Source of the DNA: Limimaricola cinnabarinus LL-001
Lineage (GTDB): Bacteria > Pseudomonadota > Alphaproteobacteria > Rhodobacterales > Rhodobacteraceae
Length of the DNA: 64,000 nt
Direction: 5' to 3'
Assembly: GCF_000466965.1 (NCBI RefSeq)
Contig: NZ_BATB01000001.1
Coordinates: forward strand, 1 to 64,000
The translations under genes and the position numbers were made by a program. This document shows, in pieces, positions 1 through 14,568 of this stretch. A model generated the notes under the pieces. The model worked only from the letters and a program-made list of their open reading frames with translations. It had not been told where the DNA came from and ran no database searches. Position 1 is the stretch's first letter; the number at the start of each line of letters is the position of its first letter.

Positions 1-285
1 GACCGGGACAGAAAGAGGAGCGCGGACAATCTGCTTCATATCTCCCGCCGTTCGGAACCTGACCTGATGTGATGGCCGCCGAAGCCCGACTTCGAAGCAG
101 TGCCGCAGATCATTTGGGCTCGGCGGGTCCGGTGGTTCGCCTCCTCGGCAAAGGGTGCGCGCAGCGTAGAAGAAGCTCCTTTGCCCGGGCGGCCGCATGC
201 AGGGACTTTGTGACGCTGAACGTTTCCGGCCGATCCCGGTCGAACCGAAATACTGGCTACGACCCACCCCAGTACGAGGAAAAAA
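1..285. other. Left-edge gap, no gene recognised
   Basis: No convincing reading frame is seen here. The overlapping frames on both strands have no recognisable protein character. The last 20 bases carry the purine-rich ribosome-binding region of the gene starting at 286. The stretch probably continues an accessory element that begins outside the window. Confidence 0.4.
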
Positions 286-1023
286 ATGATCAGCACGGGA
301 CTTCACATACCTGCCGCCACGCTCACGAAGCTCGCCAAGATGGTGGCGGAGGTGCAGCGGCAAACTGCCACGATGACACTTGCGGAACTACGGAAAGCGC
401 CGCGGGAACGGTACGCTCCGACGATTTCGCACTTCGTCCGCACGGATTTCACCGCCACGGGAGCGGTCGAGGCTTTCGTCGCCAAGCGGCTTGTCAGACC
501 TGACCACACCCAGTCGAAGAACGGGTTTATTGCCGACATTCCGATCATCGAGGATGCAAGGTACGGTGCCGAACGCATTGTTGGTGAGTGTGGCAGGTAC
601 CTGCTCGACCGAGAGATCGAGCGGCGTACACGAAACGACTTGCGGGAGTTCGTCTGCTTGACGGCTGATGAGCTCAGCGCTGCTTGGGATGAGTTGGCAC
701 CTCTGAGGAGTATCTTCGGCACCTCCTCATGGCGATGCGGGTGCCTGAGCGAACGACTTCGTCTGCGGCTCCTCGAGCAAGAAATCAAATTGCGTGAAAC
801 CGAGGCCAACCATCAGCGGCTCGTTGCGATCGCGGCAAATTCTGAGTTTCTGGCTCAGTGCCGAAAGGCCCTCGAGACAGAAACAGAGCGAGCGCTCTTC
901 CGTCGCGAGCAGATCGACCAAAGTCGATACGGGTCCTTCTACGTTTCCAGCGACTTCCAGGCCCGTTCTCACCTCGATCAGTCGGTCATCGAGTATCGCA
1001 ACTGGAAAGGTTGGAGGGCCTGA
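286..1023 (+). CDS. Hypothetical protein, 245 aa
   Basis: I do not recognise this family. The ATG follows a purine-rich stretch (ACGAGGAAAAAA) that can serve as a ribosome-binding site. The protein is charged, with no signal peptide or membrane segment. Residues from about 155 to 215 (LRLRLLEQEIKLRETE onward) are predicted by eye to be helical and coiled-coil-like, which hints at an oligomerising cytoplasmic protein. It lies upstream of a relaxase gene on the same strand but is separated from it by about 800 bp, so it is not clearly in the same operon. It is probably cargo of the accessory element. Function unknown. Confidence 0.5.
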   Translation: MISTGLHIPAATLTKLAKMVAEVQRQTATMTLAELRKAPRERYAPTISHFVRTDFTATGAVEAFVAKRLVRPDHTQSKNGFIADIPIIEDARYGAERIVGECGRYLLDREIERRTRNDLREFVCLTADELSAAWDELAPLRSIFGTSSWRCGCLSERLRLRLLEQEIKLRETEANHQRLVAIAANSEFLAQCRKALETETERALFRREQIDQSRYGSFYVSSDFQARSHLDQSVIEYRNWKGWRA

Positions 1024-1827
1024 GCTTCAGCCTTCAAAAGGCAGATCGGCTGGCACGTGACCCGTCGCGATGGGTTCGGCCAGCCCATCTTTTCTTCGCG
1101 CCCTGAGCTTGGCCTGTGAGACGCGCACCAATCTCAAGCGGTTAGCAGACAGGTGAGCGCATTTCGTCCGACATGCAAGCGCCGGGGGGGGGTTGATCAA
1201 TCGCGCCGCCTCGCGCGTCGGGATAGGACACGTGCTCCGCCAGTGCGCTCACCCTGCTCCGGTCATTCGATTTCCCCGCTCCACCAGGCACTTGCCCAAA
1301 GTGCCGGGTTGAGCGGGAAAACAGGTATGCCGACGAGCATTAGCTCACCGGCGACCCGCCGGCGATGCACTCGCCGACCTGTTCGGCGTCTTGAGGGGAG
1401 AGGTCGAGGAGAGGACCCCCTCTCCTTGCCGGGGCCGGGGAGGCCCGAGCAGGCGGGGCGGTGGGGAAGGAGTGCGGAACGACCTCCCCACCCCGTCGGA
1501 GACGCCAGGGGGTTTCCAAAGGGGGAGTGGCGAACGATGACCCTTGGCCCGCCAGGAGGCGCCGGAGTGCAGGGGTGGCGAGCGCCCTGCCGCCGTCCGC
1601 GCAGGACCGCCCGCCGCGCAGGCGCCCCGCCGGAGGCGCGGGGTCCGGGGCAGCGCCTCGGCGAACGGGAGAGCTGCGCGCAACGAGACGAAGGCCGGTG
1701 CGCGCAGCTCAGTAGTGAGTACAGAGTACAGAGCTGCGCGCATCCCGGGAGGCGCCCGCAGGGCCGCCCGAGGCGGTCCTGATCCCGATCGGTAGCGACG
1801 GCCTTGGCCGGGACGCAATTCCCCGGA
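1024..1827. other. Non-coding leader of the relaxase gene
   Basis: This stretch of about 800 bp has no credible gene; the frames in it are arginine- and proline-rich shadows. It is strongly GC-rich around 1380-1640 with short inverted repeats. At 1671-1742 it carries the ordered inverted and direct repeats reported separately as a candidate transfer origin. Confidence 0.5.
1671..1742 (+). other. Candidate oriT upstream of MobV relaxase
   Basis: GAGCTGCGCGCA (1671-1682) is followed by its exact reverse complement TGCGCGCAGCTC (1699-1710), giving a perfect 12-bp inverted repeat with a 16-nt loop. A third direct copy lies at 1731-1742. The 20 bases between arms two and three contain TAGTGAGTACAGAGTAC, which resembles in layout the TAGTG-type nick region known for MobV plasmids such as pMV158. 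The position, about 90 bp before the relaxase start, is where MobV origins usually lie. The repeats are seen directly; the oriT role is inference. Confidence 0.45.
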
Positions 1828-3543
1828 ATGGAAGAGCCAGAGAACCTCATCGTCCAGCGATATCAGCGCGTGACCTGTTACAGCCTCGGCGGGGTCGAAG
1901 CCCATGGGAAACGCCTCGGAGACGATCTCGAACATGTCGATCCCACTCGCACGCACCTGAACGAGTATCTCGTAGGGCACGAGCATCTTCGTGACATCGC
2001 CAACGAGCACATTGCGCGCATGCAGAAGGACAACGGCGTACGTAAGGCAGCGGGACTGCGCCGCAGCCGACATACTTCCCAAGCCAGAGAACTCGAAGAC
2101 GCCATCGAGGGGGCCGGGGACGATCCGCACGCGCTGGCGGAGCTCGTCGGCTGGCCGTGGGACCTCAAGAATGTCGCTCCGTTCACTGAGGGCCTGATCT
2201 CCGTCTCGCACGAATGGTTCCTCGACTGCGAGGGCAGCGAAGACCCCGCCAAGATCGATGTCTTCCGCGACTTCGTCATGGGCTATCTGGAGGAGGAGTT
2301 CGGCGATGAGGTGCTCTACGCCCGCTTCGACCGCGACGAGAAGACCCCGCACATCTCGTTCATCGTTGCACCCGAGCACGAGAACAAGAGGACCAAGCGG
2401 CGGGAGCTGAGTCATCATCGACATCGACTGTTCGGCATGAAGGAGGTGCAGCCGCTCTTCGAGGGCGACGAGCCCGACCCGAAGCTCACTCGCCGGAGCT
2501 ACGAGCTCCTCCAAGATCGTATTGCCGACTTCGCCCAGCGTCAGGGTCTCGACCTCCAGCGCGGCGAACGCCGTGCCGCCAAGGAACGAGCCAAGCGGAT
2601 ACGTGGCGAGGCGGTATGCAAGCGCAGGAACATTTCGCCGGCTCGCGGCCGTGAGTTGGCCGCGATGGAGGCCGAGGCTGCCGTCGAGGACCGGAAGGAA
2701 GCAGTGAAGGAAAGGGCCGCGGCGGTTGAGGACAGGAAGGCTGCTGCACAGGAGCGAGCCGAGGCAAAGGAAACGCTCGTCGGGGTCCGAGCCAAGCAAC
2801 AAGCGGCTGAACAGGCCCGGCGAGAGGCCGCCACTGCCAGTGCGGCTCTGGCAGCCAGAGAGCAGTCCCTGCGCATAGGGACGCAAGCTGTCATAGCCGA
2901 AGAGCTCACCTACTCGCCGCCTTCAGCAGAACGGCCCGAGGGCCTGACTTGGGGGCGCAACAAGCCGAAGAGCAAGAAGCGGCGCGAATGGCTCATGGAA
3001 AAGATCCAGCCGGCGCGGGACTGGATCGTGGGCTTCGCCCGGACTACGTTCGGCCTCCACAAGCGCATCGCTGCCAAGCTGGCAAAGCAGCAAGCTCGCG
3101 CAGCCGCCATCATCGACTTCGAAAAAGCCCAGAACCAGACGCCTCCGAAGTCGATGCTCGACATCGTAAACCTGAACGAGGCAGGACCCGACGACGAGCT
3201 GCGACCGATCCCGGGGGCATGGGCGGTGCCCACCGACTTTACGGTCGAGCGCCTCGACGAACATCTTCGAGGTCTTACTAACACTGATATCTGCGACGCC
3301 TACGCTCCGACGCGAGACGCAGCGGACTTCGCAGAGCATGATGACATCCAGGTTCGTTACCGGGCTGGCCAGCATCATCTTGCCGAGGAAGCAGCACGTC
3401 GTGGCTTGGTCATCGAGTTGCGCGAGCACCACCCCGGCCAAGCCACTGACGCCGGGCGCGCGCTTCTGCACACCGACTCTCCGCCCCGGGCCCTTCACGT
3501 GATCCGGACAAATCACGCCCGCGAGAGGCGGCGGGGCAGCTGA
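1828..3543 (+). CDS. MobV/Mob_Pre-family relaxase, 571 aa
   Basis: This is a plasmid mobilization relaxase of the MobV (Mob_Pre) family, which nicks oriT on one strand and carries it into the recipient cell. The N-terminal domain has the family motifs: YSLGGVEAHGKR with the presumed catalytic His26, then HVDPTRTHLNE, and the metal-binding-type motif DEKTPHISFIVAPE near residue 190. From about residue 255 to 370 there is a long Ala/Glu/Arg coiled coil, as is common in this family. A TTG eight codons earlier also keeps the frame, but the ATG at 1828 precedes the conserved start of the family. A candidate oriT lies just upstream. It marks the region as derived from a mobilizable plasmid or element. 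Confidence 0.85.
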   Translation: MEEPENLIVQRYQRVTCYSLGGVEAHGKRLGDDLEHVDPTRTHLNEYLVGHEHLRDIANEHIARMQKDNGVRKAAGLRRSRHTSQARELEDAIEGAGDDPHALAELVGWPWDLKNVAPFTEGLISVSHEWFLDCEGSEDPAKIDVFRDFVMGYLEEEFGDEVLYARFDRDEKTPHISFIVAPEHENKRTKRRELSHHRHRLFGMKEVQPLFEGDEPDPKLTRRSYELLQDRIADFAQRQGLDLQRGERRAAKERAKRIRGEAVCKRRNISPARGRELAAMEAEAAVEDRKEAVKERAAAVEDRKAAAQERAEAKETLVGVRAKQQAAEQARREAATASAALAAREQSLRIGTQAVIAEELTYSPPSAERPEGLTWGRNKPKSKKRREWLMEKIQPARDWIVGFARTTFGLHKRIAAKLAKQQARAAAIIDFEKAQNQTPPKSMLDIVNLNEAGPDDELRPIPGAWAVPTDFTVERLDEHLRGLTNTDICDAYAPTRDAADFAEHDDIQVRYRAGQHHLAEEAARRGLVIELREHHPGQATDAGRALLHTDSPPRALHVIRTNHARERRRGS

Positions 3544-3589
3544 GGCTTCCGAGGCCTCCCTGCCCTTCTCACCGCCGATGCGAGCAAGG

Positions 3590-4276
3590 CTACTGATCCG
3601 TGCTCGGCAGAGCGGAGAAAATCATCGGTAGATCCCCGGTTTCGGGGCCGACGATTTTCCGGCTCCCCCGAGCGCGTTTGGTCGCATTCATGTCATTGCC
3701 CTCCTCCAAGGCGCCGCCGGACTGGCGCAGGGCGGCAAGGATGTCGGCACGTTCTGCCAAGCGCGACTCCGCGGCGGCCAGTTCAGCCTGAATGGTCTCA
3801 AGCTGCAAACGCAATGTTTCCGCCTGCTTCTCCGCCGCATCGGCCCGGTCGCGCTCGGCATCGCGATCGGCTTCGACGACAGTGACGACTTCCTGCATCT
3901 GCGCCAGATCGGTTCGGTGGTTGCCGCGCTCAATCGCCAGAATGCGCTTCGTGTCGACGAGTTCACCATTCAGAAGCTCGCGGGCTTTCGCCCAAATCGC
4001 CTTGAGACCCTGATCATTCGCGAGGCGCAGTTCCTCGGGAATATCGGGCATGGACGCAAGGCGCGTCTCGATCGCACCGAGCCGTGCCTCCACCAGGCGG
4101 GCTGCCTCGCACAGACGCGAGAAGGAAGTTTTGATGACCGCGTTGAGCTGGACCCGGGTGGGATTCTTGCCGTCGTGCTCGGCGCGAAAAGCGAGATACG
4201 CTTCTTCGACGCGTCGCAACAGCTCCGGGTTGATCGACCTGGGGTCTTGGGATGGGGAAGGCTCTGGCGCGGTCAT
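3590..4276 (-). CDS. KfrA-like DNA-binding coiled-coil protein, 228 aa
   Basis: The N-terminal 60 residues (LLRRVEEAYLAFRAEHDGKNPTR region) resemble the KfrA_N type helix-turn-helix domain of plasmid-encoded regulators. This is followed by a long helical coiled coil from about residue 60 to 190, and a basic tail. KfrA proteins bind operators upstream of their own gene and help organise or partition plasmids. A pair of GGTATTACC palindromes stands just upstream of the start codon and is a good candidate operator. The gene converges on the relaxase gene with a gap of only 46 bp. The assignment rests on the domain pattern and the plasmid-like context; the exact subfamily is uncertain. Confidence 0.6.
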   Translation of the reverse strand: MTAPEPSPSQDPRSINPELLRRVEEAYLAFRAEHDGKNPTRVQLNAVIKTSFSRLCEAARLVEARLGAIETRLASMPDIPEELRLANDQGLKAIWAKARELLNGELVDTKRILAIERGNHRTDLAQMQEVVTVVEADRDAERDRADAAEKQAETLRLQLETIQAELAAAESRLAERADILAALRQSGGALEEGNDMNATKRARGSRKIVGPETGDLPMIFSALPSTDQ

Positions 4277-4310
4277 GGCGAACTCCGTGTAAGATGTAAC
4301 GTCCGGTAGC

Positions 4311-4330
4311 GGTATTACCGGGTATTACCG
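4311..4330. promoter_or_regulatory. Tandem palindromic operator upstream of KfrA-like gene
   Basis: Two copies of GGTATTACC (4312-4320 and 4322-4330) sit one base apart. Each is an odd palindrome (GGTA-T-TACC), extended to CGGTATTACCG at the first copy. They lie about 35-55 bp before the start of the minus-strand KfrA-like gene. Such paired palindromes fit autoregulation by a dimeric DNA-binding protein. The binding protein is inferred. Confidence 0.5.
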
Positions 4331-4341
4331 CCCCGAAGGGG

Positions 4342-4867
4342 GTGGCACAGAGAACATTGGTCCATATGGGCCAGCCCAAAACGATCCAAGCACGATTTTC
4401 GAAAAGCTCACGATTTCGGGGCTTTGACACAGCATCACCTGACCCGGATGTGCATCTGTATGGAAAGATTGCTGGCTCGCAGCACATCAGCCCGAGCCTT
4501 GTTTTTTCGAGTGCTGGGCCTCCAGGCATGGCTGCCAGGTATTGGCCCCTCAACGGTGGCCAAACCTATCAGTCGCTACGGCTGGTAATTCCGGCACCTG
4601 AAGGCCGGGCCTGTATCATGGCGGTGGCGCTCGGAGCAGCGACGGGCTTCGGCAGCTTGGCCGAAGCCGGCGGTCCGACGCGCTGCGGACGTTCCGACCA
4701 CCGAAATTCGGCTAAAGTTGGCCGCTGTTTCCGACCAGGAAATTTTGGCTTTTCCCGTTCAATGCATCCGTCCTCACGCACTTCTGGGGGTTCTTGAGCT
4801 TCCATAGGTTCCGCAGGTTCTCACCCCGACTTTTTCTTTTTGCCTCAATGACATGACGAGGATCGGC
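4342..4867. other. Non-coding region ahead of the 21-bp repeats
   Basis: No convincing gene is seen; the open frames here have no recognisable character. Two related 21-mers, TTCCGACCACCGAAATTCGG+C (4692-4712) and TTCCGACCAGGAAATTTTGG+C (4729-4749), lie 37 bp apart and may be extra protein-binding sites for the origin-like repeats that follow. Confidence 0.35.
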
Positions 4868-5035
4868 CGGCAGAGATCCGGCATTCCCGGGCAGAAATTC
4901 GGACTTTCGGGGCAGAACTTCGGAGTGCGCGGACAAGCTGACGGAGTATTTCGGCAGGAACGGGCCCCGTTCAGACCACCGTCGGCACGGCTCAGGCAGT
5001 TTTCCGGCTGGGTCAGACAATTTTGCGGGTGGTTG
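4868..5035 (+). repeat. Eight degenerate 21-bp direct repeats (iteron-like)
   Basis: The stretch divides exactly into eight units of 21 bp: 4868-4888, 4889-4909, 4910-4930, 4931-4951, 4952-4972, 4973-4993, 4994-5014 and 5015-5035. The best-kept core is GGGCAGAA.TTCGGA, clearest in units 2 and 3 and weakening at both ends. There are no unique spacers, so this is not a CRISPR array. A regular period of two helical turns directly upstream of a gene resembles the iterons of theta-replicating plasmids. Because 21 is a multiple of three, the array could also be read as a heptapeptide repeat, but no start signal or homologous protein supports that. Confidence 0.6.
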
Positions 5036-5102
5036 TCACGGGTTCTTTTTCCGAGCGGTTCGCTTCGGACCCAGATCCCCTCTGAACAACAGGAGGGACC
5101 TC

Positions 5103-5888
5103 ATGTCCAAACCCACAGAATACCTCATGCCCAAAGAATTAGTCGCCCTGGTGGAGAAGGCCAAACCATCACTGCACCTGCTCCGGCTGTTTCACGGCTG
5201 CTATGCCTTTGTCGATTCTCAGAAGCACCTCTCGGTCGGCGTCATTGCGACAACCGGCCTTCGGGGTTGTAGCGTTGCATGCTCGGACATTGCGGCGATT
5301 GCCGGCTCCCCCGGTGGAAAGAGCAATGCCTGGGTCGAAGCCGCCATCGACGCCGGTGATTGGCGCCACCTGTTCTCTCACCTGAGCCTGGATACGACTG
5401 GGCGCGACCTGACCTTCAAGTTCGCTCCCAAGGTAGGGAATGCGTGGCTTCGGCAAAAAGCGGACCCGTTCGCGATGCTCGACAGCGAGGAGGTCCGGAA
5501 GATAAGTTCGGCCAACGAAGTACTCTTCTACACACAGGCGGCGATGGTGCATCGGGCGGAACAGCCGATGTTCAATCTGCCCTTCATCTGTCCGATCTCG
5601 CAGCCTTGGAACGATGACACCAAGAAGACGTGGCTACGGATCGCCGTCCGGGTAGGACAGAAGCTCGGACAGGATTACGTCTTCATTCCCAAGCGTGACC
5701 CTCTGAACCGCCTCGTCGTGGCAGTCGTGGTCAAGGTCGTGACCTCGTCCTCCCTTTGGTCACCTGGAGCGCTCTTCCCACGGCCGCCATGCCCCCCCGT
5801 CAGCGTGGTTCATGACAGCGGCTTCTCCAGTTTGAGGAAGGCAGAACTCATAGCTCGTCGGAACTGGACCCGCGCGACGGGTTCATGA
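5103..5888 (+). CDS. Unrecognised protein downstream of iterons, possible Rep
   Basis: I do not recognise this 261-residue protein by family. The start is well supported: AGGAGGG lies about 6 bp before the ATG. It is soluble, with no signal peptide or membrane segment. The region from about residue 140 to 200 (FYTQAAMVHRAEQPMFNLPF and the following KKTWLRIAVRVGQKLG) has a mixed helix/strand character. The last 50 residues are proline- and serine-rich and may be altered sequence. Its place directly after eight 21-bp direct repeats, near relaxase and KfrA-like genes, suggests a plasmid replication initiator that binds those repeats. That role is inferred from context only. Confidence 0.5.
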   Translation: MSKPTEYLMPKELVALVEKAKPSLHLLRLFHGCYAFVDSQKHLSVGVIATTGLRGCSVACSDIAAIAGSPGGKSNAWVEAAIDAGDWRHLFSHLSLDTTGRDLTFKFAPKVGNAWLRQKADPFAMLDSEEVRKISSANEVLFYTQAAMVHRAEQPMFNLPFICPISQPWNDDTKKTWLRIAVRVGQKLGQDYVFIPKRDPLNRLVVAVVVKVVTSSSLWSPGALFPRPPCPPVSVVHDSGFSSLRKAELIARRNWTRATGS

Positions 5889-6250
5889 TCCAAACCATTA
5901 AGAAAACGAGACAAGTCGAGGAGTAGCCAACTTAGACTTGCCTCGGGTTCGGCCTGACGAGAACTCCATGGGGAATATCCTTGCCATACAACCTTGGCAC
6001 CAGGGTCTATGTATCCAGGTTCGTAAGCATCGGCGGATCGCCACCGCTTGTTGCGTGTCCAAGTTACAGCCTCTACACGTTGGGCCATCCGCCATCGCAC
6101 GAAGTACCAAGAAGCGGAGCAGTAGCAGTAGGGCATAGGTGGCCGATCCACAGGAAGCCTCAGCCCCAACGCCATTCGTTCTTGTTATGTTCTCAGATCC
6201 AGTGTAGCAAGACTGCACGCAAGCGCACAGTATAAGGAAGCAAGAACGAT
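5889..6250. other. Intergenic stretch before the methyltransferase operon
   Basis: No credible gene is seen; short frames on both strands lack conserved features. Base composition becomes AT-richer toward the right. The final 20 bases include the AAGGAAG ribosome-binding region of the methyltransferase gene. The promoter of the restriction operon should lie here, but no clear -35/-10 pair could be picked out. Confidence 0.35.
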
Positions 6251-7276
6251 ATGGATTCTTCGTCTTTTCCAAACACCCTCACTGTCGATAGCGAGAAATC
6301 CGCTCAGTCAGTTCCGGTTTCCGCCGCTGCGTCGAAGTACGCCTATACGTCGAAATCTGGACACTTCGCAGGCCTCATGCATGGTGACTCAGCTACAATG
6401 CTGAAGTCACTGCCGAGTAATGTCTTTAATGTAGCTGTCACGTCACCCCCTTACTTTTGGGTGCGAGATTATGGCTATGACGACCAGCTCGGCCACGAAG
6501 AATCTGTGGACGCCTACGTCGAAGCTCTAATGGGAGTTTTCGATGAAGTAAAACGGACGCTCCACCCTGAAGGTGTCTTCTTTCTGAATATCGGTGATAC
6601 CTACTATTCAGGAAATGGGCAACCGCACGGCAGCGACCCGAAATGTTCCTCCCGAAACTTCCTCCGCACGAAGGTCCGTCCTGTCGATATGAGCGGGTGG
6701 GATATTCCGAAGAAAAGCATGATTGGCATACCGTGGAAAGTTGCCTTCGAAATGCAGCAGCGTGGCTGGACGCTTCGTAGTTCGATCATCTGGAACCGCT
6801 GCAACGCTTTCGTCGAACCAACTGCGCGGGATCGGCCATATCGGCAGTACGAATTTGTCTTTATGTTTTCCAAAAGCCGTTTTTACAGCTTCGACCGCTC
6901 GAAGCTGGTCGAGGAAGATGTCTGGAACATCCCAATAGAACGCAACCGACGCGCCAGTCACAACGCCGCGTTCCCTTCGGAGCTTGTGCGTCGTTGTATT
7001 GAGGTCGCCAGTCCACCGAACGGCCATGTTCTCGATCCCTTTGTTGGAAGCGGAACATCCATCCTGACTTCTATGGCCAATCACCGTAATGTTGTCGGCA
7101 TCGATATGAGCGATGACTATATCGATTACGTTCAAGGCGCAGTCGAGGCTGAAGAATACCAATCTTCGTCTTGGGGTGAACTCGTAGAACGCCTTCAGAA
7201 GCCGTCCCCGCTTTGGGATGACTGGACAGGTAACCGACAGAACTTCCGCAAGCCGGGAAAATCGAAGAAAGAGTAA
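6251..7276 (+). CDS. Site-specific DNA methyltransferase (SPPY type), 341 aa
   Basis: This is an amino-group DNA methyltransferase of the N4-cytosine/N6-adenine superfamily. The catalytic motif IV is TSPPY (residues 64-68) and the AdoMet-binding motif is DPFVGSGT (262-269). The catalytic motif precedes the AdoMet motif, which is the beta-class order. SPPY often, though not always, goes with N4-methylcytosine. AAGGAAG precedes the ATG. The gene ends three bases before the GTG of a McrB-like gene, so the two are translationally close and form one operon with the following McrC-like gene. The codons are AT-richer than in the core genome, a sign of recent transfer. The recognition sequence cannot be read from the protein. 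Confidence 0.9.
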   Translation: MDSSSFPNTLTVDSEKSAQSVPVSAAASKYAYTSKSGHFAGLMHGDSATMLKSLPSNVFNVAVTSPPYFWVRDYGYDDQLGHEESVDAYVEALMGVFDEVKRTLHPEGVFFLNIGDTYYSGNGQPHGSDPKCSSRNFLRTKVRPVDMSGWDIPKKSMIGIPWKVAFEMQQRGWTLRSSIIWNRCNAFVEPTARDRPYRQYEFVFMFSKSRFYSFDRSKLVEEDVWNIPIERNRRASHNAAFPSELVRRCIEVASPPNGHVLDPFVGSGTSILTSMANHRNVVGIDMSDDYIDYVQGAVEAEEYQSSSWGELVERLQKPSPLWDDWTGNRQNFRKPGKSKKE

Positions 7277-7279
7277 ATC

Positions 7280-8887
7280 GTGCAGTACTTCGATATTCCG
7301 ACAATTAAGCAGTCGATAGAAGCGCTTCAAGAGGTCAGTGCAAATTGGCTGATCCCCGCTTTTGTTTTCGCCGCAAACGATATCGGCACAAGTGCCTTTG
7401 TGGACATGTCCCAGCAAGCTGGCACCGATCGCTTCCTTGACCAATATTTCAACGCTGACTTGGTAGGAATCGACGCTTTCCCGTCTGGGAACAATCTGCT
7501 TCGCCCTCGCCTCAAAGGCATTAAATGGAAGAGTGGCAACTTCGCTGGCGACTACATGATCCGCCAAGATACGAAGATGTGGGGCAATCTCTTTTCCAGC
7601 CGTGGCTACCGTGAAATGCGGATGCAAGGCCAGATTGAAGGCGAGAAAACCACCATTCGCCTTACAACAGACTTTCAGTCCGCCTTTGAAGAAGAAATTC
7701 CTGACGCGTTCGAGTTTGAAGATTTCATGGTCTGGCTTTTTGCCTTCAAAGGCTTTCCAGACGACATTATGAGCTGGCAGGCTCTATATGATTACCTTTT
7801 GCAGAATGAACTCGAAATCCCAAGCTTCCAGCCCCCTTACCAGGGCAGGTTCAGATTGACGCAAGATCGCGATTGGCCTGCGACATCGAATGTTCGACCT
7901 TCGGATGAAGACTTTATTAACGAACTTGCGCCTCGCTTAGCAGCATATCTCGCTGAGCCGCCCGCGACTGAAACCGATGCTGCCATAAAGAATCCTATTA
8001 GCGCCGACGATGCAGTATTGGCAATTATTCTCAATGCCATCAACAAGAAAACCAGCCATTCGTTTCTTCTTGCTGGGCCGCCAGGTACGGGAAAGACTAA
8101 ATATGCGCATGATATCGCTGACTATCTGACTGACGCAGATGAGAGCCGCATCCTCTTTCTTCAGTTTCATCCAGCCTTCGGCTATGATGATTTCGTCGAA
8201 GGTTTCAGACCAGTCGAAGCCAAGGACGCAAACGGAGGTGACATAGGGGTCACTTACAGGCTTGACTCGCGGCATTTCCTAAACTTTGCAAATCAGGCAA
8301 AATCCGACCCTAACAATCATTATGTTCTTGTAATTGACGAACTGAACCGCGGTGATGTGGCGCGTATTTTTGGTGAGCTCCTGACGTATCTGGAGCTTGA
8401 CTACCGTGACAAGGAGTTCACGCTCGCTATTTCTGGTACGAAAACCAAGCTACCTCGCAATCTGATTGTCTTGGCTACTGCGAACCCGTTTGATCGCTCA
8501 GTTACTGATCTCGATGATGCACTTCTGCGTCGCTTTATTGTCATCTCAATGGAGCCGGACAAAGTATTTCTTCAGAAGTACCTGAAGGACAAGGGAGTTG
8601 AAGAACGTGTGCTTACACGCGTTGTGCGTCTGTTCGATATATTGAACGAATCCTTTCCGGCAGGCTTTGGCCACACCAATTTTCTGCATGTTCGCAGCGT
8701 CGAAGATTTGGCTCATGTATGGGAAGGACGAGTAAAGCTCGGCTTGCAGCGCACGCTTTTCCATGACCGCCAAAGGTTCAACAGCATAAAGGAGGAGGTA
8801 GATCAACTGCTTGAAGTTGATGAAGAAGCGGAAGCGGCTGGAAGCGATGAAGCGGCCGCGGCAATCGATGTGGCGATAGAAGGTTGA
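7280..8887 (+). CDS. mcrB: McrB-like AAA+ GTPase subunit, 535 aa
   Basis: This is the motor subunit of a McrBC-type restriction system. The C-terminal AAA+ domain shows Walker A GPPGTGKT (266-273), the McrB-type stretch FHPAFGYDDFVEGF (296-309), Walker B LVIDELNRGD and the sensor TANPFDRS (400-407), equivalent to the NTADRS signature that favours GTP. The first 180 residues form a separate N-terminal domain, presumably for target recognition; it does not obviously match the 5-methylcytosine-binding domain of E. coli McrB. The start is a GTG three bases after the methyltransferase stop. The stop overlaps the TTG start of mcrC. The AT-rich composition matches its operon neighbours. Confidence 0.88.
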   Translation: MQYFDIPTIKQSIEALQEVSANWLIPAFVFAANDIGTSAFVDMSQQAGTDRFLDQYFNADLVGIDAFPSGNNLLRPRLKGIKWKSGNFAGDYMIRQDTKMWGNLFSSRGYREMRMQGQIEGEKTTIRLTTDFQSAFEEEIPDAFEFEDFMVWLFAFKGFPDDIMSWQALYDYLLQNELEIPSFQPPYQGRFRLTQDRDWPATSNVRPSDEDFINELAPRLAAYLAEPPATETDAAIKNPISADDAVLAIILNAINKKTSHSFLLAGPPGTGKTKYAHDIADYLTDADESRILFLQFHPAFGYDDFVEGFRPVEAKDANGGDIGVTYRLDSRHFLNFANQAKSDPNNHYVLVIDELNRGDVARIFGELLTYLELDYRDKEFTLAISGTKTKLPRNLIVLATANPFDRSVTDLDDALLRRFIVISMEPDKVFLQKYLKDKGVEERVLTRVVRLFDILNESFPAGFGHTNFLHVRSVEDLAHVWEGRVKLGLQRTLFHDRQRFNSIKEEVDQLLEVDEEAEAAGSDEAAAAIDVAIEG

Positions 8888-10179
8888 GTCGAGCGACGTC
8901 AATGCCACCTCCTGAAGCACGAGTTATCGAAATCGCAGAACGTGGAAGACACTATTTTCCGCGAAGCGAACTCGTGGACCACCATGGGCGCTCGCTCATC
9001 CTTCCCGAAACTCGCGAACTAAAAGCGATTGAACTTAAAGACGTTTCCGATGGCATAGATCTCGTGGCGCTCGGATTAATTGGATTCTTGCCGCTCACCA
9101 GCTCGATCACTCTTAACATTGTCCCAAAATTTCCAATCGAAAATTTGTGGGCAATGCTGGAGATTGGCGGCGAAACATACGCCCGGATTCTTCCGACAAT
9201 TAGGCGCTATCAAGTCACAGAAAAATCTACACCTATACACCTTCTTGCGCGGAGCTTTTGCCACTATTTGCGTAAGGCGCTTTCAGCAGGATTTGAGCGC
9301 AGCTATTACCCGCGCGCCGTGAACGGCTTCTACCAGCCACGTGTCGAGTTTGGCCAAACTATAAGCCGCTACCTTTCACGCGGAAACCCCATTAATACTG
9401 TTTCAAGCGTATTTGAATTCGGACTCGATAGTCCAATAAATCGGGTGGTAAAGGCCGCGTGCCTCCGCTTCGCTCGAATTATTCCACCCACGAAAGACTG
9501 GGATGAGGAACGCCGCCTCATTCAGATCGCACTCGATACGTTGCGTCGCGTCAATGAGCGTGAACCGACCGGGCATGACTTTTCCCTCGACGAGAGCGTC
9601 TCGCTGAGGCTCCGCAGCAATTATGAGGCCTTGCTCCGCGTCTATCATCTTTTACTGACAGGCGGCGGAATCGCCTTTACGTTCGAACCAAGAGGAAAAG
9701 AGCTCCCCTCGTTCCTCTTCAACCTCGAAGATGTGTTTGAGAGATTTATCCGTCAGACCTTCGTAGAGGCTCTTCGCCCCCAGCGGATTTCTGTTCTCGA
9801 TGGTAACAAGCATCAAGGCAGGCTTTTCGAGGACAACAGTACCTACCCAACAAAGCCCGACTTGATTTATCGGCGAGGCAAGAAGGAAGTTCTTGGCCTC
9901 GGCGAAGTGAAGTACAAGCCAAAAATCAAGGAAGTTGATCGCTACCAGATTATTAGCCATGTCACAGCTGCCAGCGCGCAATTCGGGGTTCTATTCTCTC
10001 CAGCCAACGAAGGTGAGAGTCAGGGCCTTAAGCGCATCGGCCGCATGTCAACAGGCGCAAAATTTTATCACTACCGTGTAGATATCCGCGGCGATATCCA
10101 CTCCGCCCGGGCTCAGATGGTGAAAGATATCTCTGCATTGCTACCAGCAGGTATAAATGCCGATGCCATTTCGGTATAG
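8884..10179 (+). CDS. mcrC: McrC-like nuclease subunit, 431 aa
   Basis: This is the nuclease partner of the McrB-like GTPase. The N-terminal half (to about residue 250) is the McrC arm that contacts the McrB ring. The C-terminal half has the PD-(D/E)xK nuclease motif, KPDLIY (Asp326) followed by GEVKYK (Glu341, Lys343), preceded by LFNLEDVFERFI, which is typical of McrC. The TTG start overlaps the mcrB stop (TTGA); an in-frame ATG at 8902, six codons later, is an alternative start. All catalytic residues are present, so the subunit looks functional. With the upstream methyltransferase it forms a three-gene restriction-modification operon. Confidence 0.88.
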   Translation: MSRATSMPPPEARVIEIAERGRHYFPRSELVDHHGRSLILPETRELKAIELKDVSDGIDLVALGLIGFLPLTSSITLNIVPKFPIENLWAMLEIGGETYARILPTIRRYQVTEKSTPIHLLARSFCHYLRKALSAGFERSYYPRAVNGFYQPRVEFGQTISRYLSRGNPINTVSSVFEFGLDSPINRVVKAACLRFARIIPPTKDWDEERRLIQIALDTLRRVNEREPTGHDFSLDESVSLRLRSNYEALLRVYHLLLTGGGIAFTFEPRGKELPSFLFNLEDVFERFIRQTFVEALRPQRISVLDGNKHQGRLFEDNSTYPTKPDLIYRRGKKEVLGLGEVKYKPKIKEVDRYQIISHVTAASAQFGVLFSPANEGESQGLKRIGRMSTGAKFYHYRVDIRGDIHSARAQMVKDISALLPAGINADAISV

Positions 10180-10478
10180 CACTTTTGTTTCGCACAAGCG
10201 TTGACGGCCTCTTCGGCGAACGGCGATGTTTCGCTAATCCCATGGAGGCCGGATCTTTTTCGTTCCCGTCGCGCCTCAAGTTGGCGCTGTTGTAGAGCTC
10301 AAGCTTGAGCCTTAGTTTTCCGTTTCCCCAACGAGGTCTTGCCGCGCGAACGTTCTCGGCAGCGCCGAGGGTTGAGAAGCGGTTCATGAGGGCATTGCGG
10401 ATGTGGACTTCAGCGGACTGGCGGTCGGGGTTTCTCGCGGCGATGCGCTCCCCGAGCGGATCGTCACCCATGAGGTAG
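10180..10478. other. Spacer between mcrC and the IS256 remnant
   Basis: No complete gene is seen. A minus-strand frame entering from 10471 (MGDDPLGERIAARNPDRQSA and on for about 45 residues) has coding character and may be the truncated end of an unrelated gene, but it runs into mcrC antisense without conserved features. I could not name it. Confidence 0.35.
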
Positions 10479-11760
10479 TGTAGCTCCTGGCTGGCCTGAT
10501 GGGTTTCGGCGGGCCGAGTTGATCAGTCCGTCTGCGGGGCAGGCACGAGCACTTCCAGCGTCATGTAATAGAGCGCTGCACCGTCCCTCCTCGGTCTGCT
10601 CCATCAGGATCGCTCCTACCAGGCGTCGAATGGCGACCTCATTGGGGAAGATGCCAACAACATCGGTGCGCCGTTTGATCTCACCGTTCAGGCGCTCAGT
10701 CGGATTTGTCGAATGCAGCTCTGTCCCGTATTGCTGGGGAAAGGTCATGTAGGCAAGGGCATCCTCCTTGGCCCCGTCCAGGAGGGCAGCAAGCTTCGGC
10801 AGCTTGCCTCGCATCTGGTCGGCCATGAGGGCCATTGCGTTCTGGCGGCGCCGTGGTCGGGCTGGGCGAGGGCCGTGGCAATGAACGCTGACACGACCCT
10901 GCGGCTGCTCTTGCCGGCATGGGCCAAGGCGTTTCGCTGGAAATGCACTCGGCAACGCTGCCAGGTCGTGGACAGCACGCGGGCGGTAGCAGCCTTGATG
11001 CCTTCGTGAGCATCGCCGATCACAAGCTTCACGCCGGACATCCCTCGGCGCACGAGGTCGCGCAGGAAATCGGTCCAGAACGTCTCCGCCTCGGAAGGGC
11101 CGATGGCCATGCCAAGCACCTCGCGACGGCCATCGGTGTTCCCACCCACGGCGATGGTGACGGCGACGGACACGATGCGGCCGCCTTGGCGGACCTTGAG
11201 ATAGGTCGCATCGATCCAGAGATAGGGCCGCTCGCTCTCGATCGACCGGTCAGGAAAGCATCGACCCGATCGTCGATCTCTTCGCACAACCGACTGACCT
11301 GGCTCTTGGCGATGCCGATGCCGCCCGTGGCCTGCACCAGATCGGCCATGACACGCGTCACAACACCGTGGACGCAGGCCTTCTGGATTACCGCCATCAC
11401 TGCCTATTCAACGTCCCGCCGGGGCTCCAGGAACGAGGAAAAGTAGCTGCCCGTCCGCAGCTTGGGAGTGCCCAGCTCTACGTTCCCGGACCGCGCCTGC
11501 CAGTCCCGGTAGCCGTTGCGCTGCGCCCGCCGCTCAAGGCTCATCTCGCCATAGGCGGCGCCGGTCTGGCCGCCGACCTCGAGCTCCATCCGGCGCTCGG
11601 CGGTAAAACCGATCATCTCGCGCAGAAGATCCGCGTCACCGCTCTTCTCCACAAGCTCTCTCAGGTCCATCAGGGGTTTGGTCATCGGGGTCATCCCATT
11701 GTTCAGGTTGGCTTTCGCCCTCCGACCCTATCGAGAAAACCGATGGCTGCTTCAGCTACA
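10479..11760 (-). mobile_element. Degenerate IS256-family insertion sequence
   Basis: The element is defined by a broken IS256-type transposase on the minus strand. TGTAGCT occurs at the left end (from 10479) and, inverted, as AGCTACA at 11754-11760, giving possible imperfect terminal inverted repeats. No flanking target-site duplication of 8-9 bp could be recognised, so the exact ends are uncertain. It lies between the McrBC operon and the tRNA-Ser gene. Confidence 0.5.
10521..11694 (-). pseudogene. IS256-family transposase, inactivated
   Basis: The N-terminal piece (11694 to 11404, MTKPLMDLRELVEKSGDADL) is followed in the same frame by a TAG at 11404-11406 where a Lys codon is expected. 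Reading then continues through SKSQVSRLCEEIDDRVDAFL. A frameshift near 11251 moves to the frame with the first catalytic Asp (LWIDATYLKV) and the second (VIGDAHEGIKAA). Another near 10850 leads to the piece with the catalytic Glu (NPTERLNGEIKRRT). A third near 10585 changes the C-terminus, whose expected frame ends around 10521. All three DDE residues are still readable but are spread over several frames. The element can no longer make an intact transposase unless the sequence has errors here. Confidence 0.85.
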
Positions 11761-12104
11761 CCATACTCCGCGACACGACCGCCTAAAGCTACTCGGCGAG
11801 AGGATCATGTAACGAAATCCCGACCGCTAAACTGCCGAAATCCAGATCTGCATCGCCATCATGAACCGCTTCTCGACCTTTGGCAGGGCCGAGGTCGAAG
11901 CCGTCCACTGAAGAAAGGCAGAAAAAGAGGCAGTCATGCTCGAGACGGATTTGCGCAACATCGCCCATTCGCGTGCCCCACATTGTGTCCCAAATTGCGT
12001 CCCAAAATAGTGACTCGGCGCAGGCGCTTAACTGCCACTTGGCGCAAATTTAGCTATATAACAGAGACTTACCCGCCACCCGCAGACTGAGATCGATTGT
12101 CGGG
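11761..12104. other. Junction between accessory region and tRNA-Ser
   Basis: No gene is recognised in these 340 bp. Codon-like patterns of the core genome are absent. At 11971-12007 there are three tandem repeats of about 12 bp, described separately. The stretch just left of the tRNA 3' end is where an integration attachment site would be expected, but no second copy of the tRNA 3' end is visible inside the window. Confidence 0.4.
11971..12007. repeat. Three tandem 12-bp repeats near tRNA-Ser
   Basis: GCGTGCCCCACA, TTGTGTCCCAAA and TTGCGTCCCAAAA follow one another without spacer. On the minus strand they read as TTGGGACGCAA, TTTGGGACACAA and TGTGGGGCACGC. They end about 100 bp from the tRNA 3' end. 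Such repeats can be arm-type binding sites of a tyrosine recombinase, but no integrase gene is present to support this directly. Confidence 0.4.
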
Positions 12105-12110
12105 TGGCGG
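12073..12110 (-). other. Hairpin overlapping the tRNA-Ser 3' end
   Basis: CCGCCACCCG (12073-12082) and CGGGTGGCGG (12101-12110) are exact reverse complements with an 18-nt loop. The right arm includes the tRNA CCA end and discriminator. It could act in transcript ending or processing of the tRNA, or be part of an attachment site; there is no T-run after it. Confidence 0.35.
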
Positions 12111-12194
12111 AGGAGGTGGGATTCGAACCCACGGTACGCTCTCACGCACGGCGGTTTTCAAGACCGCTGCAATCGACCACTCTGCCACTCCTCC
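12105..12194 (-). tRNA. tRNA-Ser(UGA)
   Basis: The minus strand folds as a 90-nt class II tRNA. It has acceptor arms GGAGGAG and CTCCTCC, discriminator G and an encoded CCA at 12107-12105. The anticodon loop CTTGAAA has anticodon TGA, there is a long variable arm, and the T-loop is GTTCGAATC. The 3' end points toward the accessory region, the usual arrangement when an element has integrated at a tRNA. Confidence 0.95.
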
Positions 12195-12399
12195 GGCGCA
12201 CTCGCCCTAAGCACTGCGGCGCGATTCGGAAAGAGGTCCGATCACGCGATTTTCCGCGAGCTGACGCGCTACCGGCTTTCAAAGCCGCACGCCCCCCCGA
12301 TATGTTCGCCACGCATCGCCGACCACCCGATCGCGGGCGGCGGTGAACAGACAAGAGCGGACCGGGCAACGGTCCGAGCGGGCAATCGAGGGACGACAC

Positions 12400-13224
12400 A
12401 TGCCAGCCACCATTACTGCGCGGCCGGTCGCGATGCTGCTGGGCACGCTGCTCGCCCTCGGTGCCTGCGGCGAGACCGGCTCCGCCACCGGCCCCGGCGG
12501 CGCCGACCGCACCGAGATCGTCTCGCGCGACGTGGAGGCCCCGGGCGTGTTCCAGGTCACCGATTCCGGCCTGTGGGACGGGCGCCCCTCGCTGGGCGGC
12601 GTCTGGGTCGCCTATCCGGAGGTCGACGTCGAACAGATCGGTCAGGTCGTCATCCGCAACGAGGCCAATGGCCGCTTCGTGATCGGCGCGCTGTTCCGGC
12701 GCGAGCGCGAAACGCCGGGACCGGCGCTGCAGGTCAGCTCCGAGGCCGCCGAAGCACTGGGAATGCTCGCCGGTGCGCCCGCCCGGCTCAATGTCACGGC
12801 GCTGCGCCGCGACGAAAGCGCCGCCCCCGAGGCCCCCGGCGCCACCACCGATTTCGACGACCCCATGCCGATCGCCGCCGTGCCGCTGCCGCCCACCGAC
12901 GGCGCCGCCGGGGCTCCGGCGGCGGCACCCGAGACCCTCGCCCCCGCGCCTGCGACGCCCGCCCTCGAGACGCCCGCCCCGAGCGGCGATCTCGATCGGC
13001 CCTTCATCCAGATCGGCATCTTCTCGGTCGAGGCCAACGCCCGCGACACCGCCACGGCGATGGAGGTCGAGGGGCTGGCCGCGCGCGTCGTCACCTCCGA
13101 GATCCAGGGTTCGAGCTACTGGCGCGTCGTCGTCGGCCCCGCCGCGGCGGCGGAGGCCCGCGACGCGGCGCTGGTGCGCGTCAAGGCTTTGGGCTTCACG
13201 GATGCCTATTTCGTGCGAAACTGA
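12400..13224 (+). CDS. SPOR-domain lipoprotein, 274 aa
   Basis: A signal peptide ends in the lipobox LGAC (Cys23), so the protein should be anchored in the outer membrane facing the periplasm. A compact domain (about residues 40-140, GVWVAYPEVDVEQIGQVVIR) resembles the double-psi-barrel region of RlpA-like proteins. An Ala/Pro-rich linker follows, and the last 75 residues form a SPOR domain (FIQIGIFSVEANARDTA to the end) that binds denuded septal peptidoglycan. An upstream GTG at 12343 keeps the frame, but the ATG at 12400 places the signal peptide correctly. The gene sits upstream of a D-Ala-D-Ala carboxypeptidase, consistent with a role in cell-wall remodelling during division. Confidence 0.75.
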   Translation: MPATITARPVAMLLGTLLALGACGETGSATGPGGADRTEIVSRDVEAPGVFQVTDSGLWDGRPSLGGVWVAYPEVDVEQIGQVVIRNEANGRFVIGALFRRERETPGPALQVSSEAAEALGMLAGAPARLNVTALRRDESAAPEAPGATTDFDDPMPIAAVPLPPTDGAAGAPAAAPETLAPAPATPALETPAPSGDLDRPFIQIGIFSVEANARDTATAMEVEGLAARVVTSEIQGSSYWRVVVGPAAAAEARDAALVRVKALGFTDAYFVRN

Positions 13225-13312
13225 TCCGGGACCGGGCCGACGCATGGCCCGGTCTCGACCTCTTCTTCCCGGCCGCCGCCGCGTGGCCCGCCAACCGACC
13301 GGAGCGACCTTG

Positions 13313-14568
13313 ATGATCCGTGCCGTCTTCCTCGCCGCCGCGACCCTCGTCGCTCTCACGCCCCTCGCCCATGCGCAGGGCTTCGAGACACCGGCCCGCG
13401 CGGCCTATGTGCTCGACCACACCACGGGCACCGAGCTTCTGGCCAAGAACGCCGACGAGGCGCTGCCGCCCGCCTCCATGTCCAAGCTGATGACGCTCTA
13501 CATGGCCTTCGAGGCGATCGCCTCGGGGCGGCTGTCGGCCGATCAGCGTCTGCCCGTCTCCGAACATGCCGCCTCCTATGGCGGCTCTTCGATGTTTCTC
13601 GACACCACCGACCGTGTGCGGGTCGAGGATCTGCTGCGCGGGGTGGTCGTGCTGTCGGGCAACGACGCCTCCGCCGTGCTGGCCGAGGCGCTGTCGCCGG
13701 ACGGAACCGAGGCGGGCTTTGCGCGGCTGATGACCGAACGCGCCCGCGAGATGGGCATGATGAACTCCACCTTCGCGAACTCCAACGGCTGGCCCGATCC
13801 GCGTCAGCGCATGTCGATGCGCGATCTGGGCATCCTCGCCAGTCACCTGATCTCGGATTTCCCGACCTTTTACCCGATGTTCGCCGAGCAGGAATTCGAG
13901 TTCGATGGCCGCGTGCCGTCGAACAGCCAGAACCGCAACCCGATCCTCGGCCTCGGCATCGGCGCCGACGGGCTCAAGACCGGTCATACTTCCGAGGCGG
14001 GCTACGGCCTCGTCGGCTCGGCCAAGCAGGGCGAGCGGCGGGTGATTTTTGTGATCACCGGCCTCGACAGCACGGAATCGCGCCGCGTCGAGGCCGAGCG
14101 GATCGTCAACTGGTCATTCCGCCAGTTCGCGCAGCGCGACATCGGCGCCGCCGGCACCCGGATTTCGGAGGCCGAGGTCTGGATGGGTGAGCGGAACCGG
14201 GTCGGCCTGACGCTGGCCGAGGACGTGTCGGTGCTGCTGCCCGTCATGTCGGGCGACGATCTCGCCGCCGAGGTGGTCTATCAAGGCCCCGTCGAGGCCC
14301 CGATCGAAAAGGCCAGGCATTGGCCGAGTTGGTGATCGCGCGCGAGGGGATGCCCGCGACGCGAGTACCGCTGGTGGCCGAGACGGGCGTGGCGCGGGGC
14401 GGCTTCGTGCCGCGGGTCAAGGTCGCGGCCTCGGTGCTGTTCGATCGCTTCGGTCCCGAGGGGCTCACGCTGCCCGGCCTCGATCCCTTGGCCGAGGACC
14501 CTGCCCCGGAAACCGACGCGACCCCCGAGGCGGAGCCCGCCACCCCCGCCACCGAAGACGAAACCTGA
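13313..14568 (+). CDS. D-alanyl-D-alanine carboxypeptidase (PBP5-like), frameshifted
   Basis: This is a periplasmic carboxypeptidase that trims the terminal D-Ala from peptidoglycan stem peptides. The signal peptide ends at AHA-Q (residue 21/22). The catalytic motifs are intact: S55MSK58, SGN (115-117) and KTG (222-224). The frame closes early at 14335, and the rest of the PBP5 C-terminal domain (ELVIAREGMPATRVPLVAE onward) continues in another frame to 14568. Adding one G at about 14311-14313 (AAGGCC to AAGGGCC) joins the two parts into 418 residues. The catalytic domain would fold either way, but membrane attachment by the C-terminus would be lost if the shift is real. It is probably a sequencing error. 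Confidence 0.85.

What the first reader, a model, noticed from the sequence alone, without database searches (positions are those of the whole stretch)
6251..10179. Three-gene methyltransferase-McrB-McrC operon
An amino-methyltransferase of the SPPY type is cotranscribed with McrB- and McrC-like subunits, with a 3-bp gap and then an overlapping start. Classic McrBC cuts methylated DNA and has no companion methylase. In a few systems, such as LlaJI, McrBC-like subunits act as the restriction part of a conventional restriction-modification system. Here the methylase is a beta-class SPPY enzyme, not a 5-methylcytosine enzyme, and the first 180 residues of McrB do not look like the E. coli modified-base reader. 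The operon may protect against unmodified DNA at the site methylated by its own methylase, an unusual use of the McrBC motor. The AT-rich composition shows it is foreign.
Basis: partly seen in the sequence, partly recalled or inferred. Interest (0 to 1): 0.75.

Follow-up and report, generated by a model that had tools for sequence, protein, structure and literature searches.

The report
Methylase-guided McrBC-type restriction-modification operon
Three neighbouring genes in a mobile DNA island most likely form a defence system that marks the cell's own DNA with a methyl group and cuts unmarked foreign DNA with a motor-driven nuclease that, in its classic form, attacks marked DNA; a few such systems are already known, but this one pairs a different kind of methylase with an unrecognised DNA reader.

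Summary
The operon is real. Window 6251-7276 encodes a beta-class amino-methyltransferase, 7280-8887 an McrB-like AAA+ NTPase with an NxxD signature, and about 8902-10179 an McrC-like PD-(D/E)XK nuclease. McrC's "overlapping start" is probably wrong: relatives start at the ATG matching window 8902. The block is intact in 10 of 10 distinct full-length relatives (genome contigs, three plasmids, one viral contig). The McrB N-terminal domain was found only behind this methylase and matches no Pfam, PHROG or PDB sequence profile. The methylase's wider lineage pairs elsewhere with XcyI (CCCGGG) and NotI-like enzymes and, probably, with other McrBC-like pairs. Best reading: a restriction-modification system that uses the McrBC motor against unmethylated DNA. 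That kind is known (LlaI, BsuMI, LlaJI and the phage-tested PcaRCI), and MTase-linked McrBC has been noted since 2008. What differs is a single N4-cytosine-lineage methylase and an unrecognised reader domain. The target site is unknown; a tree does not support CCCGGG. The block lies in a GC-poor island ending at tRNA-Ser. All function is inferred.

The parts
6251..7276 (+). Beta-class amino-methyltransferase (341 aa), motif IV TSPPY and motif I DPFVGSGT; lineage related to N4-cytosine MTases of XcyI-type R-M systems
   Evidence: PF01555 7.9e-39; both motifs invariant in 10 aligned triad MTases but for one residue (V265, A in L004); 38-39% overall identity to three MTases next to XcyI endonucleases
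7280..7957 (+). N-terminal domain of McrB (residues 1-226), proposed DNA-site reader; no recognisable family
   Evidence: no Pfam (E<=1), PDB-sequence (E<=10) or PHROG (E<=0.1) match; in plasmids at E<=10 found only in the 3 triad records; conserved NLLRPR and QxTKxWGNxxSSRGYR segments
7958..8887 (+). McrB AAA+ NTPase module: Walker A GPPGTGKT (266-273), Walker B IDE (352-354), NxxD signature NPFD (402-405)
   Evidence: AAA_5 4.9e-14; PDB McrB structures 6hz4/6ut3 at about 1e-27; residues 266-272, 352-354, N402, P403 and D405 invariant in 10 sequences
8902..10179 (+). McrC-like nuclease subunit (425 aa, start revised from 8884): PD-(D/E)XK motif D320...E335-V-K337
   Evidence: PF10117 5.7e-21; D320 and K337 invariant in 10 sequences, E335 replaced by D in L007; start codon by alignment of relatives
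7277..7279 (+). 3-bp gap between MTase stop and the GTG start of McrB, same length in 8 of 10 distinct relatives
12105..12194 (-). tRNA-Ser (TGA); its 3' end (12105) is the island boundary
   Evidence: window 1-14500 against a 19-kb stretch of same-genus genome G107 aligns at 12105-14496 only

Best explanation
The three genes are a mobile restriction-modification system with an McrBC-type restriction half. The methyltransferase marks one base, most likely N4-cytosine, in a specific site on host DNA. The unrecognised N-terminal domain of McrB binds the same site when it is unmarked. The McrB AAA+ ring, stimulated by McrC through the NxxD motif, then uses GTP to move along DNA, and the PD-(D/E)XK centre of McrC cuts invading DNA. 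Shown here: gene content, intact catalytic motifs, strict co-occurrence, presence on mobile elements, and lineage. Inferred: the base modified, that the McrB N-terminal domain reads the methylase's own unmethylated site, GTP use, and translocation.
For: (1) MTase-McrB-McrC order intact in 10 of 10 distinct full-length relatives, 53-80% identical in McrB, in Roseobacteraceae, Stappiaceae, Phyllobacteriaceae, Sphingomonadaceae, a Rhodospirillales MAG, a Latescibacterota MAG and a viral contig. (2) In these searches the N-terminal domain was never found without this MTase: 3 of 3 plasmid records at E<=10; own genome only among 385 class and 398 phylum genomes; even the broken copy L087 has the MTase 3' end 3 bp before it. 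(3) Catalytic motifs of all three proteins conserved. (4) The MTase is the best conserved protein of the block: mean pairwise identity 75% against 64% (N-terminus), 66% (AAA) and 60% (McrC) in 11 sequences. (5) Of 17 wider MTase relatives whose annotated neighbours were viewed, 5 have an XcyI endonuclease next (L072-L074, L090, L098), 1 a NotI-like enzyme (L096), 3 an AAA protein that is or may be McrB-like (L071, L091, L097), and 8 no evident restriction partner. So the restriction half appears exchangeable. (6) No EVE, YTH, DUF3578, SRA or B3 Pfam match in the N-terminus at E<=1 (list of families recalled). (7) Precedent: PcaRCI and LlaJI.
Against: No functional data. The recognition site and methylated base are unknown. 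Neither AlphaFold model of the N-terminus is usable (mean pLDDT 46.6 and 44.0), so a diverged modified-base reader cannot be excluded. Distances of MTase and N-terminus correlate least among the six pairs (r 0.69 against 0.83-0.92), so there is no sign of especially tight co-evolution between those two parts. The McrBC nature of L071, L091 and L097 is only partly shown: L071's third gene has no Pfam match, no McrC-like gene was identified at L091, and L097's AAA hit is below Pfam's cut-off. A linked MTase can also be a bystander: PMC2614495 proposes that MTases linked to McrBC have specificities that do not create a McrBC target.
Confidence: 0.8

Rival explanations
1. Type IV system with a travelling companion: McrBC cuts DNA carrying some foreign modification read by the N-terminal domain, and the MTase only marks host DNA for other purposes or prevents a competing modification.
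For: Classic McrBC is modification-dependent; MTases of other specificity are often linked to McrBC (PMC2614495 passages). McrC and AAA modules are typical. NTD-wH-NTPase proteins paired with McrC-like subunits are described beside winged-helix readers of N6-methyladenine, though untested for activity (PMC11037411 passages), and the weak N-terminal model shows a helix-hairpin-helix at residues 107-139.
Against: A bystander would be lost or swapped in some lineages; 10 of 10 distinct full-length relatives keep it. No Pfam match for a modified-base reader. Foldseek hits are all insignificant, best E 2.9.
Confidence: 0.14
2. The block is a decayed or unexpressed remnant, or the MTase alone is kept by the mobile element to protect itself.
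For: Relatives of the MTase without an evident restriction partner exist (phiAH14a, L082; L045) and a broken copy of the block lies in a viral contig (L087).
Against: In the window all three frames are open with catalytic motifs intact, and McrB and McrC are conserved along with the MTase over 49-83% identity.
Confidence: 0.06

Closest known systems
PcaRCI of Pectobacterium carotovorum RC5297 (PMC8989522; passages read)
   Same: One MTase plus McrB-like and McrC-like proteins; unrelated McrB N-terminus; MTase protects DNA from restriction; blocks unmethylated plasmids and phage ZF40
   Different: [quoted passage not shown] here the MTase is a beta-class amino-MTase and McrC is 425 aa. Sequences not compared here
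LlaJI (PMC1459862 passages; PMC12707154 passages)
   Same: McrB-like R1 is the specificity subunit, McrC-like R2 has PD-D/EXK; recognises an unmodified site
   Different: Two MTases for an asymmetric site (GACGC/GCGTC) and, per the review, a B3-domain N-terminus; here one MTase and no B3 match. LlaI and BsuMI are described there with three restriction ORFs
MTase-associated NxxD branch of McrB (PMC11090510 passages)
   Same: NxxD signature and a linked DNA methyltransferase, noted as a prevalent association left for a separate publication
   Different: Passages read do not describe this MTase, this N-terminal domain or these members; placement in that tree not tested
XcyI/Cfr9I/Pac25I CCCGGG R-M systems
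   Same: MTase lineage (about 40% identity by tblastn)
   Different: Restriction enzyme is a single XcyI-family nuclease (PF09571), not McrBC; their MTases fall in a different, well-supported part of the tree
Streptococcus phage phi1207.3 spyIM locus (annotation seen)
   Same: MTase next to two subunits annotated as restriction endonuclease; the first matches the McrB AAA part (37% over 167 aa)
   Different: C-5 cytosine MTase, divergently oriented

Membership tests
McrBC-type restriction-modification (LlaJI / PcaRCI kind) | Operon of MTase with McrB-like NTPase and McrC-like nuclease | tested here: met
   all three present and conserved in order
McrBC-type restriction-modification (LlaJI / PcaRCI kind) | McrB N-terminus unrelated to the E. 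coli modified-base reader | tested here: met
   no Pfam match at E<=1; sequence level only, fold unresolved
McrBC-type restriction-modification (LlaJI / PcaRCI kind) | Restricts unmethylated DNA; own MTase protects | not testable with these tools
   Needs plaque or plasmid assays
LlaJI proper | Two MTases for an asymmetric site | tested here: not met
   No second MTase frame seen next to the block in the window or annotated directly beside it in L008 and L010; L009 has two genes annotated as methyltransferases further upstream, substrate untested
LlaJI proper | B3 DNA-binding domain in the McrB-like subunit | tested here: inconclusive
   No Pfam match; structure models too poor
Classic type IV McrBC | AAA+ GTPase with NxxD motif and McrC with PD-(D/E)XK | tested here: met
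   (sequence motifs; GTP use not tested)
Classic type IV McrBC | Modified-base reader domain at the N-terminus (DUF3578, SRA, EVE, YTH) | tested here: not met
   by sequence profile; a diverged fold is not excluded
Classic type IV McrBC | No cognate MTase | tested here: not met
   MTase in 10 of 10 distinct full-length relatives
XcyI/Cfr9I type II R-M (CCCGGG) | XcyI-family endonuclease partner | tested here: not met
   Partner is McrBC in every full-length relative. PF09571 in 0 of 9 relatives' genomes or records, but that search rang in no control genome and so proves little
XcyI/Cfr9I type II R-M (CCCGGG) | MTase inside the group spanned by XcyI partners and the CCCGGG enzyme of phiAH14a | tested here: not met
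   triad MTases with L045 and L071 lie across a branch with support 100/99
N4-cytosine MTase | Methylates the N4 of cytosine | not testable with these tools
   Nearest PDB chain is a cytosine-N4 MTase (8s9m, 2.5e-15), almost tied with a putative methylase 2zie (2.8e-15); M.XcyI, M.Cfr9I, M.SmaI are listed as cytosine-4 MTases in PMC8557920 (passage)

The most novel reading that the evidence does not exclude
A separate class of R-M system in which an N4-cytosine methylase is matched to an McrBC motor through a previously undescribed sequence-reading domain at the McrB N-terminus, possibly containing a winged helix. The wider methylase lineage would have acquired McrBC-like restriction halves more than once, possibly three times (triad; L071; L091/L097), in place of ordinary type II enzymes. 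The McrBC motor would then be a general, exchangeable cutting engine for R-M systems, not a type IV speciality.
Probability: 0.45. Interest if true: 0.55.

Novelty: new variant of a known kind. Interest (0 to 1): 0.42.

Why it matters
If confirmed, it shows that the McrBC motor is repeatedly reprogrammed from attacking modified DNA to attacking unmodified DNA by swapping the McrB N-terminus and adding a methylase, and that this happened with N4-cytosine as well as 5-methylcytosine methylases. It gives a compact, mobile, testable system, and a strictly linked methylase from whose motif the reader domain's target site could be read directly.

Tried and rejected
CCCGGG as the target: suggested by about 40% identity to MTases beside XcyI enzymes and 37% (tblastn) to phiAH14a AH14a_p05, whose CCCGGG first-cytosine specificity is experimental (PMC4936722 passage). 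Rejected as unsupported because the triad MTases fall outside that group in the tree and the stretch between motifs IV and VIII differs by insertions. CCCGGG is rare in the window (20 against 48.7 expected), but 31 of 35 palindromes with a usable expectation are below expectation in 12301-64000 (CCCGGG fourth lowest), so this says nothing.

Descent of the McrB N-terminus from an XcyI enzyme: profile comparison gave probability 0.1% (3-row XcyI profile).

Fold of the N-terminus: AlphaFold with 8 rows on residues 1-226 gave mean pLDDT 46.6, on residues 1-146 gave 44.0. A PDB search with the second model gave 73 hits at E<=10, none at E<=0.001, best 2.9; most of the 50 listed are helix-turn-helix regulators, mostly aligned over fewer than 60 columns. 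Noted only as a weak hint of a winged helix.

An EVE-like N-terminus in L012's McrB was my first impression; Pfam did not support it, so it is dropped.

Literature: CC-licensed PMC papers only. No report of this operon or of an N4-cytosine MTase with McrBC was noticed in the listings of the ten searches; passages, never whole texts, were read from 13 papers. Subscription journals are not held.

Rows left out. L002 is a second contig of L001's genome with the same match values; L041, L043 and L085 are from a viral record of the length of L002's contig; L044, L086 and L088 are L042's contig again; each kind is counted once. L061-L070 (10 of 28 loci) and L075 were not put in the tree. The broken L087 is not counted among the full-length relatives. 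In one search, 110 of 394 family genomes matched McrB, but every match listed outside the own genome begins at residue 208 or later, i.e. on or near the AAA part.
Full report
WHAT IS THERE. Window 6251-10179 holds three open frames in one direction. The first is a 341-residue amino-methyltransferase with PF01555 at E 7.9e-39. Its catalytic motif TSPPY (64-68) precedes the cofactor motif DPFVGSGT (262-269), the beta order (class naming recalled). The second, starting at GTG 7280, is a 535-residue McrB-like protein: an unrecognised N-terminal part, then an AAA module with Walker A GPPGTGKT, Walker B IDE and the NxxD signature as NPFD (402-405). It matches PDB McrB structures at about 1e-27, on the AAA part only. 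The third is an McrC-like nuclease, PF10117 at 5.7e-21, with a PD-(D/E)XK arrangement D320, E335, K337 (numbered from ATG 8902).

A CORRECTION. In 6 of the 9 distinct relatives whose start was examined, the start that aligns lies 13-14 bp after the McrB stop; the matching window codon is ATG 8902, 14 bp after the stop. The 3-bp MTase-McrB gap is right and recurs in 8 of 10 distinct relatives.

HOW CONSERVED. One scan of the genome collection with McrB gave 7 loci; in the plasmid collection 3 of 313 matching records cover at least 80% of the query; the viral collection gave 2 loci, one with the length and match values of a genome contig already found. After removing such copies there are 10 distinct full-length relatives, and all 10 carry MTase, McrB and McrC in the same order (McrB 53-80% identical). 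Hosts named in the records are Roseibium aquae, a Rhodospirillales MAG, Tranquillimonas, Sinisalibacter, Citreicella and a Latescibacterota MAG, and plasmids of Roseibium porphyridii, Mesorhizobium and Sphingobium. The block is rare: the N-terminal profile was found only in the own genome among 385 genomes of the class and 398 of the phylum (the sets overlap), and the MTase profile at E<=1e-30 only there among 390 of the order. The own genome, 94.8% complete, holds one copy. Among 11 sequences the MTase is the best conserved part (mean pairwise identity 75%, against 64% N-terminus, 66% AAA, 60% McrC), and distances of all four parts correlate (r 0.69-0.92, 0 of 2000 permutations as high for each pair), as expected for a block inherited together. 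The MTase/N-terminus correlation is the lowest of the six, so no special co-evolution of reader and MTase can be claimed.

THE N-TERMINAL DOMAIN. Residues 1-226 match no Pfam family at E<=1, no PDB sequence profile at E<=10 and no PHROG at E<=0.1; HMMER's filters drop most matches above about 0.1. Across all plasmids at E<=10 it occurs only in the 3 records that also carry the MTase. A third viral contig, L087, holds only its first 56 residues, 3 bp after the 3' end of the same MTase gene, next to a frame that looks like a 5-methylcytosine MTase (by eye): a broken remnant. Two structure predictions failed (pLDDT 46.6 and 44.0). The second shows helix 107-115, strands 119-122 and 125-128, and helix 130-139, an order compatible with a winged helix, and its insignificant PDB hits are mostly helix-turn-helix regulators (best E 2.9). 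This is a hint, not a result.

WHERE THE METHYLASE COMES FROM. MTases of about 40% identity (tblastn) lie directly before XcyI-family endonucleases on Agrobacterium, Aeromonas, Xanthomonas, Serratia and Comamonas plasmids (PF09571 1.6e-104 for the one tested). M.XcyI, M.Cfr9I and M.SmaI are listed as cytosine-4 MTases in a table of PMC8557920 (passage), and the phage enzyme AH14a_p05 was shown to protect CCCGGG, by the authors' conclusion at its first cytosine (PMC4936722 passage). In a 43-row tree the triad MTases are one group (100/100) and join L045 (weakly, 87/58) and L071 (100/99), apart from the XcyI partners and AH14a_p05. So N4-cytosine is the likely product, but CCCGGG cannot be assumed. 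Several rows, L071 and L096 among them, have long branches and the tree program warns about them.

EXCHANGEABLE PARTNERS. I viewed the annotated neighbours of 17 non-triad MTase relatives: 5 have an XcyI enzyme next, 1 (L096) a NotI-like enzyme (PF12183 2.3e-8), 3 an AAA protein that is or may be McrB-like, and 8 no evident partner (L075, L082-L084, L092-L095). The three: L071 (Mycobacterium paragordonae plasmid) has a 45% identical MTase, then an AAA_5 protein (9e-18) that tblastn with our McrB did not find, then a 669-residue protein with no Pfam hit. L097 (Thauera plasmid) has a MTase, a 671-residue protein with a weak AAA hit (25.4 bits, cut-off 27; the record calls it a DNA methyltransferase) and a DUF2357 protein (3.9e-34); DUF2357 as an McrC-like family is recalled. 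L091, sister of L097's MTase, has an AAA_5 protein (6.2e-10) two genes on. In the window's own family, G342 has a 5-methylcytosine MTase (PF00145) beside an McrB (42% identical on the AAA part) and an McrC. MTase type, McrB N-terminus and nuclease module thus seem to be mixed and matched, as expected if McrBC is a restriction half.

MECHANISM. From anatomy and precedent, the MTase marks host sites; the McrB N-terminus binds the unmarked site; the McrB ring and McrC translocate and cut. Precedents: in LlaJI, R1 is the specificity subunit and R2 the presumed cutter, though R1 showed no GTPase activity in vitro (PMC1459862 abstract and passages). In PcaRCI the MTase with McrB-like and McrC-like proteins blocks unmethylated plasmids and phage, and methylation restores infection (PMC8989522 passages). 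In Thermococcus gammatolerans McrB, N and D of NxxD are essential for GTP hydrolysis and McrC acts through that motif (PMC7680126 passages). None of this was measured for the present proteins.

NOVELTY. The principle is known: LlaI, BsuMI and LlaJI were grouped as McrBC relatives that cleave unmethylated DNA, and frequent MTase linkage was noted, in 2008 (PMC2614495 passages). A prevalent MTase association of McrB branches was announced in 2024 as the subject of a separate paper (PMC11090510 passages), which I did not see among the listings. What I did not find described is this N-terminal domain or an N4-cytosine-lineage MTase with McrBC. Hence: new variant of a known kind.

ISLAND. Operon GC is 50.6%, window 1-6250 61.9%, and 12300-64000 68.6%. 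Window 1-14500 compared with a 19-kb stretch of a same-genus genome (G107) aligns from exactly 12105, the 3' end of tRNA-Ser, rightwards and not at all to the left. The contig ends at window 1, so the other island end is unseen. The island also carries a MobV/Pre-type relaxase gene (PF01076 3.2e-11) and IS256-type transposase fragments.

Noticed in passing
window 12105 (tRNA-Ser 12105-12194, minus): Synteny with a same-genus genome starts exactly at the tRNA 3' end; what lies left of it is island. No direct repeat of the tRNA end was found in 1-12600, and the left island end lies beyond the contig end.
   Followed up: yes
window 10464-11694, minus: Pieces of an IS256-type transposase in several frames between the operon and tRNA-Ser (PF00872 in 10467-10955 and 11407-11694); looks broken.
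   Followed up: partly
window 1804-3543: MobV/Pre-type relaxase (PF01076 above cut-off; NCBIfam MobV below its cut-off), suggesting a mobilisable element; no relatives of it in the other fetched loci at E<=1e-4.
   Followed up: partly
L087 2581-4199: Viral contig with a broken copy of the block: a frame that looks like a C-5 cytosine MTase runs up to the 3' part of the triad MTase, then the first 56 residues of McrB.
   Followed up: partly
L077 2988-7078 (G342, minus): Another MTase-McrB-McrC run in the window's own family, with a 442-aa 5-methylcytosine MTase and a different McrB N-terminus, beside a gene that looks mobilisation-related by eye.
   Followed up: partly
L071 3965-8716; L097 2704-6720; L091 2330-5159: Related MTases on Mycobacterium, Thauera and Mycobacteroides plasmids followed by other AAA proteins and, in L097, a DUF2357 protein: possibly further McrBC-like R-M systems.
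   Followed up: partly
L001 9051-13562: Right of the triad in Roseibium aquae lie frames that look like phage portal and terminase genes (by eye); the sister contig L002 seems also to be held as a viral contig.
   Followed up: no
L008, L009, L010, L072, L074, L075, L090, L098: A 'recombinase family protein' is annotated within a few genes of the R-M block in each, for both McrBC and XcyI partners; possible shared mobility.
   Followed up: no
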